A stretch of DNA of 46,356 nucleotides from Calidithermus chliarophilus DSM 9957 (GTDB lineage Bacteria; Deinococcota; Deinococci; Deinococcales; Thermaceae). The notes under the pieces were generated by a model. That model saw only the letters and a list, made by a program, of their open reading frames with translations. It was not told where the DNA came from and did no database searches. Made by a program: the position numbers and the translations under genes. The stretch lies in assembly GCF_000430045.1 (NCBI RefSeq), contig NZ_KE387026.1, positions 4,789-51,144 of the forward strand. Reading direction: 5' to 3'. This document shows, piece by piece, positions 32,488 through 35,349 of the stretch. Numbering within the stretch: position 1 is the stretch's first letter; each line of letters begins with the position of its first letter.

Positions 32488-32520
32488 CGCCAAGATAACC
32501 GTAAATTCGTCGTAAATTCT

Positions 32521-32552
32521 TTATAGGCTCTAGATTGCCTAGAGCCTATAAT
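32521..32552 (+). promoter_or_regulatory. 13-bp perfect inverted repeat containing the RT -10 box
   Basis: TTATAGGCTCTAG (32521-32533) and CTAGAGCCTATAA (32539-32551) are exact reverse complements around a 5-base loop. TATAAT (32547-32552) in the right arm lies 12 bases before the RT ATG. A TTTTT run at 32554-32558 makes an acnA terminator equally possible. Two CGTAAATTC copies (32500-32508 and 32511-32519) stand just before it. Confidence 0.6.
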
Positions 32553-32564
32553 ATTTTTGGCAAT

Positions 32565-33950
32565 ATGAGTAAGCAGCTTTATCTCGACATCTTCTCACGT
32601 GAGAATATACTTCGGCGAGCAATCAAGTTTACTAAGCGCAAGCACGCTGTTGGGATTGATGGGAAGAGAGTTTTTAAGTACACCGAGGCTCAACTCGCTC
32701 ATATAGTCGATACCATTTTCTTGAGTTCTACAAACTACAAATTTAGTCCATATCGAGAGAGGTTGGCAATAAAAGATCGTGACAGGCCGCCTCGCTTAGT
32801 TTCAATTCCAACTATAAGAGATCAAGTTTTTTTATCCTTGCTAAAGGACTATCTGCATGAAATTGTCAAACCTATAGATGATAGGCACCCACCAAACAAA
32901 ATAATCAGTGATGTATACAAGGCTTACCAAAAACTAGCCCCAACTGGTCTAGTGACTAGATTGGATATCCAGAATTATTACCCCTCTGTTGCTCACGAAT
33001 ATCTATATAGTAAACTCAGTAAGGTTATTCCCCTTAGTTTCGTTAATGAGATAATACACAGAGCTATCACCAATCCTACCGTTCCTTTAGGGTACAGCCG
33101 TTCTCAGAAGTCTAGGTATATGAACTCAGAGAGAGGTATTCCTCAGGGATTAGCTATATCAAATGTACTTGCCCACATATATCTAGTTGATCTAGATGTC
33201 AAACTTCGTATGGGAAAACTTGGTTATTGGAGATATGTAGATGACTTTGTCATTTTCACGGAGAAAGATGGCTCGTCAGTTATTGATGAGGCAGGTATTT
33301 ACTTAGCAGAGTTGGATTTATCACTCAATATGGAGAAGGTAACCAGCAAAAAGGCTGAAGATGGGTTTAACTTTCTTGGCTATCGTTTTCAATATCACCC
33401 TGTACATGCATCACCCATTGTTCGAGTAGCTGATCATGGAGTAAGAAGGTTTTTGGTCAGGTGCATCAGTGACATAAGGCGTTTTAAGAAGAAATTTTTA
33501 TCCATGAAAACAAGGGAAGAGCGCGAAGCCATTGTAATAGCATTTATTGATACCCTTAACGAAAAGATAACTGGTGCATATAGTCGAAATAAACGTTACG
33601 GTTGGCTGTTTTACTTCTCACAAACAAAAGACAAGTCTCAACTTCATCTTATTGATAAAGTGATCGCTGAGGAAATCGATTGTGTATCTAGATCGTTAGG
33701 CATAAAGCTTAACGGAATAAAGAGTGCAGTTAAGGCCTATCATTTGCTCTCAGTCAACCCACGCCACGAGTACTTCCTTGATTACGATAAAATCATATCC
33801 CCCCGCGATCGCTATGGTTTTTTAGTCAGAAGAAACAGGCTGAAATCAAACGAGCCGCCTCCCCCAGAGGCTCAAGTACACGAGATTTTTGAATCTACCC
33901 GTGACTTCAACCTCTCCCAATTAGAGTCAGATGTTGGTATATTCTCATAG
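32565..33950 (+). CDS. Reverse transcriptase, defence-associated type
   Basis: A protein of 461 residues. Fingers motifs lie around PRLVSIPTIRDQV (76-88). Motif A is VTRLDIQNYYPSV (catalytic Asp124). Motif B is RGIPQGLAISN (170-180). Motif C is YWRYVDDFVIF with YVDD at 204-207, and motifs D/E lie around NFLGYRF (238-245). The polymerase site is therefore complete. A C-terminal part of about 210 residues has no maturase or endonuclease motif I can name. Followed by a structured RNA and a SLATT-type protein, it fits the UG/Abi defence RT class rather than a group II intron or DGR. ATG 32565 is preferred to the TTG ten codons upstream, which falls inside the inverted repeat. Confidence 0.88.
   Translation: MSKQLYLDIFSRENILRRAIKFTKRKHAVGIDGKRVFKYTEAQLAHIVDTIFLSSTNYKFSPYRERLAIKDRDRPPRLVSIPTIRDQVFLSLLKDYLHEIVKPIDDRHPPNKIISDVYKAYQKLAPTGLVTRLDIQNYYPSVAHEYLYSKLSKVIPLSFVNEIIHRAITNPTVPLGYSRSQKSRYMNSERGIPQGLAISNVLAHIYLVDLDVKLRMGKLGYWRYVDDFVIFTEKDGSSVIDEAGIYLAELDLSLNMEKVTSKKAEDGFNFLGYRFQYHPVHASPIVRVADHGVRRFLVRCISDIRRFKKKFLSMKTREEREAIVIAFIDTLNEKITGAYSRNKRYGWLFYFSQTKDKSQLHLIDKVIAEEIDCVSRSLGIKLNGIKSAVKAYHLLSVNPRHEYFLDYDKIISPRDRYGFLVRRNRLKSNEPPPPEAQVHEIFESTRDFNLSQLESDVGIFS
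33938..33943 (+). promoter_or_regulatory. -10 box (TATATT) for the ncRNA
   Basis: TATATT at the end of the RT gene places a start near 33950, exactly at the first base of the closing stem of the RNA. No clear -35 box. Confidence 0.45.
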
Positions 33951-34034
33951 GTAGGGTGCCTTGACTTGCATCTTTCCCTTTGCGGGGAATATGCAGGGTT
34001 TATTTCTGTTATCAATATGCACCCTACCGTTTTT
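33950..34034 (+). ncRNA. Structured RNA between RT and SLATT genes
   Basis: GGTAGGGTGC (33950-33959) pairs over 10 bp with GCACCCTACC (34019-34028), and TTTTT follows (34030-34034), as in an intrinsic terminator. Inside, TGCAT/ATGCA (33967-33971 with 33991-33995) and TTCCC/GGGAA (33975-33979 with 33985-33989) build a hairpin. About 23 bases rich in U remain unpaired on the 3' side. AATATGCA occurs twice, 26 bases apart (33988-33995 and 34014-34021). It may be the RNA partner or template of the RT; this is inferred from position and structure. Confidence 0.6.
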
Positions 34035-34054
34035 GTTCACGGCAAATAAGGGAT

Positions 34055-34666
34055 ATGACCACTAACCCGATAGTTAAAGCGTTGGAAGGCCTACGTAGTA
34101 AGGTCAATAAAACCCGTCATATAAGATTTGAAGCATCAAGAAGACTCAAGTACAAGCAAGATTTATCTACGGTCTCAGTTGCTATTTTTTCCGTGTACGG
34201 GATTGGATTCAATATCTTTCCGAGTATATTTTTGTCACAAACAGATAGAGATATGCTACCGGTGGTAAGCACACTTGTGTCTGCCTTTGTCCTTGTAATT
34301 TCCCTGTTTGAAGCCTCTAGGGGCTACGCCCAAAGAGCATACGAGTTGCACAATTGCTCTATTCTATTGACCGCACTTATTGATAAGATCGATTTGGTTC
34401 TGCTAAAGAATCAAACAGGCACACTTGCTAGTTCATTAGAAGTGGAGCTAGAGAAGCTACAAGCTGAGTACCTAAAGATTCTGATAGAATCTAAATCGAA
34501 CCATGATTATATTGATTATCTGGTTTACAATTACTCTGTTGATAAATCTGCAGGCTGGCGTAGTCCAATCTACACTAGTTTCCTAAAACACATAACGCCG
34601 TATAAACTGCACTATGCTCTACATATCACTTTTTTCATCGTCATATTCTACCTATTTTTCAGGTAA
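34055..34666 (+). CDS. SLATT-type membrane effector
   Basis: A protein of 203 residues. An amphipathic, basic N-terminal helix (KVNKTRHIRFEASRRLKYKQ) leads into two membrane segments (about 37-60 and 68-87). A long helical cytoplasmic part follows (EASRGYAQRAYELHNCSILLTALIDKID, then SLEVELEKLQAEYLKIL), and a third segment is at the C-terminus (LHYALHITFFIVIFYLFF). This is the layout of SLATT domains, predicted pore-forming effectors in defence systems, some of which pair with RTs. The ATG 34055 is used; the longer frame from TTG 33980 would run through the RNA hairpin. Shared low GC with the RT supports one system. Confidence 0.75.
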   Translation: MTTNPIVKALEGLRSKVNKTRHIRFEASRRLKYKQDLSTVSVAIFSVYGIGFNIFPSIFLSQTDRDMLPVVSTLVSAFVLVISLFEASRGYAQRAYELHNCSILLTALIDKIDLVLLKNQTGTLASSLEVELEKLQAEYLKILIESKSNHDYIDYLVYNYSVDKSAGWRSPIYTSFLKHITPYKLHYALHITFFIVIFYLFFR

Positions 34667-34800
34667 TAGCACTGTGAATGCTGTATTAGATGGCCGAGTT
34701 AAGGCTTAAATAGCCGCTAATCTAAAGTGTGATTAGGCACTATCATCTTAGTGCTCCGTTGAGCTTGGCTAGCCTATACTATCTTAATTCCGAGCCGGCC
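34667..34800. other. AT-rich non-coding tail of the island
   Basis: 134 bases with several small inverted repeats: CTAATC/GATTAG (34717-34722 and 34731-34736), GCACTA/TAGTGC (34737-34742 and 34749-34754), and the palindrome GGCTAGCC (34767-34774). No frame. It may hold the 3' end signals of the SLATT transcript or a further RNA. Confidence 0.5.
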
Positions 34801-35349
34801 CTAAAACACGCCCTGGTAAATCTGGCCCAGCGCGAGGGTGGCCTCGAGGCAGGCCAGGCGGATCTCCCCGCTGCCGGTGATGTCCTCCTGCTGCCAGTCC
34901 CCCGCGGCGTCGCGCCAGAAGTGCCGCACGAACATGTACTCGGGGTCCACGATCAGGTAGGTGTGGAGGGAGGCGATGCCCCGGTAGGCGATCAGCTTCT
35001 CCCGGAGGTCGATGTCCTTGGTGCTGGGGGACAAAACCTCGACCAGGATGCAGGGGTCGGTCTCGTAATACGGGTTCTTCGGCTCGGGGCCGCAGGCTAC
35101 CATCACGTCGGGGTAATAGAAGATGCTCTTGAGGGCGAGCTTGACGTCCGCCTGGTGCAGCCGGCATTGCTTTCGCGTGACGAAGGGCCAGAGGCTCACC
35201 GAGATGTTCATGCTGACACGGCTATGCCGGCGGCTCACCCCGGGCATGGCGTACACGTAGCCGTTGACGTACTCGTGCCGGGTCTGCTGCTTCAGCTCCC
35301 ACTCGAGGTACTCCTCAGGCGTCATGGGCTTGGCGACCGGACGAACCAT
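34801..35349 (-). CDS. Uma2 family (DUF820) putative endonuclease
   Basis: A protein of 182 residues of the Uma2/DUF820 family, which has a PD-(D/E)XK nuclease fold. MTPEEYLEWELKQQTRHEYVNGYVYAM, the acidic YPDVMVACGPE and CILVEVLSPSTKDIDLREKLIAYRGIASLHTYLIVDPE carry the conserved Asp and the E-V-L strand of the site. Such genes are numerous in cyanobacteria and thermophiles and their role is unclear. The ATG lies 6 bases after TACACT. Its GC content is host-like, so it is probably not part of the RT island it borders. Confidence 0.88.
   Translation of the reverse strand: MVRPVAKPMTPEEYLEWELKQQTRHEYVNGYVYAMPGVSRRHSRVSMNISVSLWPFVTRKQCRLHQADVKLALKSIFYYPDVMVACGPEPKNPYYETDPCILVEVLSPSTKDIDLREKLIAYRGIASLHTYLIVDPEYMFVRHFWRDAAGDWQQEDITGSGEIRLACLEATLALGQIYQGVF

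What the first reader, a model, noticed from the sequence alone, without database searches (positions are those of the whole stretch)
33938..34034. Self-contained RNA gene between RT and SLATT, with a 26-base internal direct repeat
Seen: TATATT ends 7 bases before a perfect 10-bp closing stem (33950-33959 with 34019-34028), which is followed by TTTTT. An inner hairpin leaves about 23 U-rich bases unpaired. AATATGCA occurs at both ends of an 18-base spacer. Inference: the unpaired segment may be a template. The repeated AATATGCA would let a cDNA end made at the 5' copy re-pair with the 3' copy, giving a 26-base tandem repeat in a telomerase-like cycle. One copy is partly in each stem, so refolding would be needed.
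Basis: partly seen in the sequence, partly recalled or inferred. Interest (0 to 1): 0.85.

Follow-up and report, generated by a model that had tools for sequence, protein, structure and literature searches.

The report
Compact template RNA of DRT10 defence
The short folded RNA between these two genes is very probably the template RNA of a bacterial anti-virus system that makes repeated DNA much as telomerase does. The system is already known, but this RNA is about half the usual size, and its repeat unit is more likely 9 bases than the 26 first proposed.

Summary
The locus is a DRT10-type system: RT_UG17 reverse transcriptase (E 1.6e-102) and SLATT_5 protein. DRT10 was published in 2025 (PMC12632851) as a system whose ncRNA, upstream of SLATT, templates tandem-repeat DNA by a telomerase-like A-B-A' cycle. 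Its 26-base unit is not: one copy lies inside the boundary hairpin, the 18-base spacer is near the published limit, and published Eco3DRT10 has a similar 8-base repeat 35 bases apart yet makes 9-base repeats. The better candidate is UUAU-UUCUG-UUAU (34000-34012), predicting (CAGAAATAA)n; alone, that pattern is not significant (P 0.2-0.6).

New here: gene order RT-RNA-SLATT marks one UG17 clade (99/96 support), of which this is the deepest branch. The RNA keeps closing stem, one hairpin and a 21-base loop, 79 nt in all; relatives have 118-166 nt, nearly all with three or more hairpins. An extended -10 box sits just upstream, as in relatives. With no close relative, covariation could be tested only elsewhere in the family. 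Transcription, cDNA and defence are untested.

The parts
32565..33950 (+). Reverse transcriptase of the UG17/DRT10 family, 461 aa, intact, YVDD motif, C-terminal residue Ser461 (candidate protein primer)
   Evidence: PADLOC RT_UG17 E 1.6e-102 over 3-461; Pfam RVT_1; all 26 aligned relatives match RT_UG17; C-terminal Ser/Tyr shared; AF2 model pLDDT 89, but Ser461 itself is low confidence
33935..33943 (+). Extended -10 promoter element TGGTATATT, placing the start at about 33950
   Evidence: Sequence. -10 elements 4-12 nt upstream of the closing stem are enriched in 26 family loci: mean score 5.25 against 2.98 +/- 0.24 in shuffles, 0 of 300
33950..34034 (+). Template ncRNA (79 nt to the end of the closing stem, about 85 nt with the T-run); starts on the last base of the RT stop codon
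   Evidence: Fold z -5.76; same location relative to SLATT and same closing stem-hairpin-loop plan as 30 relatives
33950..33959 (+). 5' strand of the closing stem
   Evidence: Perfect 10 bp with 34019-34028
33965..33997 (+). Single inner hairpin, counterpart of SL5, the published template boundary
   Evidence: Fold; last hairpin before the loop in relatives
33998..34018 (+). Template loop, 21 nt
   Evidence: Unpaired probability above 0.9 at 33998-34011 and 34016-34018; family loops are 16-28 nt
34000..34003 (+). Candidate A segment UUAU
   Evidence: A-B-A' search of the loop: offset 2, period 9
34004..34008 (+). Candidate B segment UUCUG
34009..34012 (+). Candidate A' (realignment) segment UUAU
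33988..33995 (+). First AATATGCA copy, in the 3' arm of the inner hairpin
   Evidence: chance of such a repeat 4.4%
34014..34021 (+). Second AATATGCA copy, loop end into the closing stem
34019..34034 (+). 3' strand of the closing stem plus GTTTTT, terminator-like
   Evidence: T-runs also follow the closing stem in L026 and L027
34055..34666 (+). SLATT_5 two-helix membrane effector, 203 aa, start 26 nt after the closing stem
   Evidence: PADLOC RTasSLATT E 4.1e-36, Pfam SLATT_5 E 2.7e-32, NCBIfam SLATT_5

Best explanation
This is the template ncRNA of a DRT10-type (UG17) anti-phage system with gene order RT - ncRNA - SLATT. An extended -10 promoter at the end of the RT gene starts an RNA at about 33950. 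The RNA folds into a closing stem, one boundary hairpin and an open 21-nt loop. The RT binds it, primes on its own C-terminal Ser461, and copies a short loop template up to the hairpin. The cDNA 3' end then re-pairs with a second copy of the A sequence and the cycle repeats, giving long single-stranded tandem-repeat DNA; the best candidate is UUAU-UUCUG-UUAU, giving (CAGAAATAA)n. The repeat DNA then controls the SLATT pore protein. Shown here: gene families, RNA fold, promoter-like site, position, and family-level conservation of the plan and of A-B-A' patterns. Taken from the published homologue: RT-RNA binding, protein priming, repeat cycling, defence. Inferred: that this compact RNA does the same, the exact repeat unit, and control of SLATT (unproven in the paper as well).
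For: RT_UG17 E 1.6e-102 and RTasSLATT E 4.1e-36. Published DRT10 mechanism. L041 holds the published Eco3DRT10 template CAATGATTCCAAT in the matching loop. Nearly every UG17 locus with an intact SLATT neighbour has a structured RNA directly before SLATT, whichever gene comes first. The Eco3-like alignment covaries: 16 of 29 pairs have compensatory changes. RT-first order is one clade, 99/96. -10 elements enriched before the closing stem, 0 of 300 shuffles. A-B-A' enriched at the expected place in the family, 0 of 2000 shuffles. C-terminal Ser/Tyr conserved. Fold z -5.76.
Against: The window RNA lacks the hairpins between closing stem and SL5 that relatives have; in Eco3 scrambling any stem-loop severely reduced defence (PMC12632851). 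The Eco3-like covariance model ranks it first in the island but at 7.7 bits, E 0.49, not significant. Its A-B-A' pattern is not significant alone (P 0.57 free, 0.21 with family offset and period ranges, 0.03 only when period 9 is fixed). No close relative, so no covariation of this very RNA.
Confidence: 0.82

Rival explanations
1. One reading: same RNA, but the cDNA realigns through AATATGCA and the product is a 26-base repeat (GATAACAGAAATAAACCCTGCATATT)n.
For: The 8-base repeat is real and seen in only 4.4% of shuffles. Longer A-A' matches give stronger re-pairing.
Against: The 5' copy lies in a stable hairpin and the 3' copy partly in the closing stem, so both must melt; predicted refolding probability about 3e-6. 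Published Eco3DRT10 has ATCCTGCC twice, 35 bases apart, in the same zone but yields 9-base repeats. A 20-base B gave no product and a 10-base B little (PMC12632851); here B would be 18. No such repeat in most relatives.
Confidence: 0.05
2. Same RNA and cycle, but with another short unit in the loop, such as GUU-UAUUUCU-GUU (10 bases) or imprecise repeats.
For: The U-rich loop offers several 3-4 base matches; a shuffled loop gives 4 or more 57% of the time. Eco1DRT10 and Eco2DRT10 work with 2-base A segments (PMC12632851).
Against: UUAU 4-5-4 is the longest match and has the same layout as Eco3 (offset 3, period 9) and others (offset 1-3, period 8-10).
Confidence: 0.25
3. It is only an intrinsic terminator or attenuator between RT and SLATT, not a template RNA.
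For: GC-rich closing stem followed by GTTTTT.
Against: Relatives have structured RNA with its own promoter at this place whether SLATT or RT comes first. The 21-nt open loop after a stable hairpin is not part of a terminator. UG17 systems need an ncRNA (PMC12632851).
Confidence: 0.07
4. It is a decayed remnant: a deletion removed the middle hairpins and the system no longer works.
For: 79 nt against 118-166 nt in relatives.
Against: RT and SLATT are open and full length with all motifs; stems are perfect; promoter, stem and spacing to SLATT (26 nt) are intact.
Confidence: 0.12

Closest known systems
DRT10 (UG17 RT + SLATT + ncRNA), Eco3DRT10 (PMC12632851)
   Same: RT family, SLATT_5 partner, ncRNA directly upstream of SLATT, closing stem, hairpin before an open template loop, 4-5-4 A-B-A' candidate, C-terminal Ser
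   Different: RT gene comes first; RNA 79 nt (Eco3 127 nt between closing-stem ends, 137 nt measured) with one inner hairpin instead of several; about 27% RT identity; does not score significantly with an Eco3-like covariance model
RT-first UG17 clade: L004 (same order as window genome), L025-L028 (viral contigs), L106/L186/L187 (cyanobacteria)
   Same: Gene order RT-RNA-SLATT, -10 element just before the closing stem, A-B-A'-like loop, forms one clade with the window RT
   Different: RNAs are 133-166 nt with 3-7 predicted hairpins; only about 30% RT identity; most end in Tyr rather than Ser
DRT9 and DRT3a (Class 2 UG RTs with ncRNA-templated repeats)
   Same: Short loop template copied repeatedly, template placed like DRT10's (PMC12483538, PMC13174585)
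   Different: Homopolymer or dinucleotide products, different RT subfamilies: Drt9 E 1.9e-15 and Drt3a E 7.9e-30 against UG17 1.6e-102
Eukaryotic telomerase
   Same: Works like it: template plus alignment segment with a stem as 5' template boundary
   Different: Far larger RNA and protein, primes on chromosome ends, no SLATT; only fold-level similarity of the RT (rank 50 of structure hits, E 5e-8)

Membership tests
DRT10 (UG17) | UG17 reverse transcriptase with YVDD active site | tested here: met
   RT_UG17 E 1.6e-102, next RT family 5e-30; YVDD invariant
DRT10 (UG17) | Adjacent SLATT-domain protein | tested here: met
   SLATT_5 and RTasSLATT
DRT10 (UG17) | C-terminal Ser or Tyr usable as protein primer | tested here: met
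   Ser461 is the last residue, aligned with Ser/Tyr of relatives; priming itself not testable here
[quoted passage not shown]
DRT10 (UG17) | Several smaller stem-loops inside the closing stem (four in the Eco3 consensus) | tested here: not met
   One hairpin only, 79 nt; relatives 118-166 nt. Filed as a variant for this reason
DRT10 (UG17) | Match to a covariance model of Eco3-like ncRNA | tested here: inconclusive
   Best hit in the island is 33949-34028 but 7.7 bits, E 0.49. The other RT-first relatives searched (L004, L025-L028, L106) are missed altogether, so the model is too narrow
DRT10 (UG17) | A-B-A' pattern in the loop downstream of a stable hairpin | tested here: inconclusive
   UUAU-UUCUG-UUAU present at the family position; not significant for this loop alone
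DRT10 (UG17) | Protein-primed tandem-repeat cDNA and phage defence | not testable with these tools
   Needs experiments
Retron | Retron RT with msr-msd RNA | tested here: not met
   Only weak retron RT scores (E 3.2e-6, far below cut-off); no Rfam match

The most novel reading that the evidence does not exclude
A natural minimal telomerase-like RNA: a working DRT10 system whose template RNA is reduced to closing stem, boundary hairpin and template loop, about 80 nt, showing that the other hairpins are dispensable in this deep RT-first branch.
Probability: 0.45. Interest if true: 0.6.

Novelty: new variant of a known kind. Interest (0 to 1): 0.45.

Why it matters
DRT10 has been proposed as the bacterial relative of telomerase. 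The deepest branch of a separate RT-first lineage with an RNA cut down to boundary hairpin plus template loop would define the smallest RNA needed for repeat addition, and gives a compact complex for structure work. The predicted product, (CAGAAATAA)n against a 26-base repeat, can be settled by sequencing one cDNA preparation.

Tried and rejected
Single-protein scans for close relatives found none: genome contigs gave only distant RTs, viral contigs none for RT or SLATT, same family and order none close. An A3-based viral scan returned the same loci as A1. Rfam: no family for this RNA or for the Eco3 RNA; a CRISPR-repeat match at E 0.19 is chance. E. coli has no DNA-level relative of the RT-first locus L026. 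Empty-site comparison with the same-genus genome failed: gene order after aconitase differs. A first local-fold scan timed out, and one comparison script failed on a missing file. The generic promoter scan did not list the 33938 site because it requires a -35 hexamer. A possible longer RNA reaching into the RT gene end (hairpins near 33851-33904) was considered; the -10 box makes it less likely but does not exclude it.

Full report
Observation. The sequence features are all present at the stated places. RNA folding of 33945-34034 gives -36.7 kcal/mol against -20.0 +/- 2.9 for dinucleotide shuffles, z -5.76. The same structure is the predicted minimum up to 70 C. The loop 33998-34018 is 21 nt; four of its bases may pair weakly with 33961-33964. 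The octamer repeat occurs by chance in 4.4% of shuffles.

Surroundings. The RT is RT_UG17 at E 1.6e-102 and the second gene is an RT-associated SLATT_5 protein. Both lie in a 39% G+C island inside a 68-69% G+C genome, between aconitase and a Uma2 gene, which suggests horizontal gain. UG17 RTs were renamed DRT10 in a 2025 preprint (PMC12632851). There a 137-nt ncRNA upstream of SLATT templates tandem-repeat DNA: A-B is copied, the cDNA re-pairs at A', a C-terminal Ser or Tyr primes, and a hairpin (SL5) sets the boundary. An earlier survey found SLATT_5 beside 82% of UG17 RTs (PMC8934634).

Relatives. A viral-contig scan, plasmids and whole genomes gave about 60 UG17 loci; all 26 RTs checked match RT_UG17. 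L041 carries the published Eco3 template CAATGATTCCAAT and is found in 188 of 5,426 complete E. coli genomes. Most loci have order RNA-SLATT-RT. The window, L004, L025, L027, L028 and L106 have RT-RNA-SLATT. L026 has the RT followed by the RNA but its contig ends before SLATT. L186 and L187 have RT followed by such an RNA and an open frame that looks like the start of SLATT (not scanned with a model). In the RT tree the seven RT-first rows form one clade (99/96), window deepest, on a long branch whose exact place is unsure.

RNA anatomy across the family. The Eco3-like alignment shows closing stem, SL5 and other hairpins, with compensatory changes in 16 of 29 pairs. All RNAs examined have a closing stem, hairpins, then an open loop, then the 3' strand of the stem. 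Lengths between closing-stem ends are 118-166 nt, with nearly all showing three or more predicted hairpins; RT-first relatives are 133-166 nt. The window RNA is 79 nt with one hairpin (two lengths typed into for L186 and L187 were estimates, corrected to 136 and 151). The gene gap is 104 nt, so there is no room for the missing hairpins. An Eco3-like covariance model puts its best hit in the island exactly on 33949-34028, but at 7.7 bits, E 0.49. It misses the other RT-first loci searched as well, so this neither confirms nor excludes homology.

Promoter. A -10 element 4-12 nt before the closing stem is enriched across 26 loci (mean score 5.25 against 2.98 +/- 0.24, 0 of 300 shuffles). The window has TGGTATATT at 33935-33943, and L025 has TGATATATT in the same position. 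This supports an RNA of its own starting at about 33950.

Repeat unit. In the family, repeats at loop offset 1-5 and period 7-11 are longer than in shuffles (3.5 against 2.24 +/- 0.19, 0 of 2000). The loops were delimited by hand from predicted folds, so this carries some choice. The window gives UUAU-UUCUG-UUAU, offset 2, period 9; Eco3 is CAAU-GAUUC-CAAU, offset 3, period 9. For the window loop alone this is not significant (P 0.57 free; 0.21 with the family ranges; 0.03 with period fixed at 9, which is partly circular). I put roughly 0.5-0.55 on the 9-base unit, 0.25 on another short unit, and 0.05 on 26 bases.

RT. Ser461 is the last residue and aligns with the Ser or Tyr of relatives. The AlphaFold2 model is confident overall (pLDDT 89) but not at 459-461, so it does not show the primer in the active site. 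Its best structure matches are group II intron-type RTs, then DRT2 and DRT9.

Verdict. A DRT10-type system with a template RNA, confidence 0.82, filed as a variant because the published multi-hairpin architecture was tested and not met. What the cDNA does to SLATT is unknown in the literature too; the preprint proposes that it controls a membrane pore.

Noticed in passing
window 32521-32551: A perfect 13-bp hairpin with a T-rich tail lies between the aconitase stop and the RT start. It has the lowest fold z-score in the island. The same-genus genome has a different GC-rich hairpin there. Possibly a terminator shielding the island.
   Followed up: partly
window 32490-34790: A 39% G+C island in a 68-69% G+C genome, holding only RT, RNA and SLATT.
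   Followed up: partly
window 34801-35349, minus strand: Uma2-family protein (Pfam, E 2.5e-30) next to the island.
   Followed up: no
L041:1605-1731: Published Eco3DRT10 RNA has its own 8-base direct repeat ATCCTGCC 35 bases apart, bridging SL5 and the closing stem; could allow strand exchange between SL5 and the closing stem.
   Followed up: no
L030 and L031, upstream of SLATT: SLATT-first UG17 loci in which no strong structured RNA was found in the 330 bases before SLATT; the ncRNA may lie elsewhere.
   Followed up: no
L188 (G498), L077, L083: Broken UG17 RT genes: two stop codons in a cyanobacterial copy, and frames split in two viral-contig copies, beside intact near-relatives.
   Followed up: no
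window 33961-33964 with 34012-34015: UUGA/UCAA could form a small helix that would hide part of the candidate A' segment; its role is unclear.
   Followed up: no
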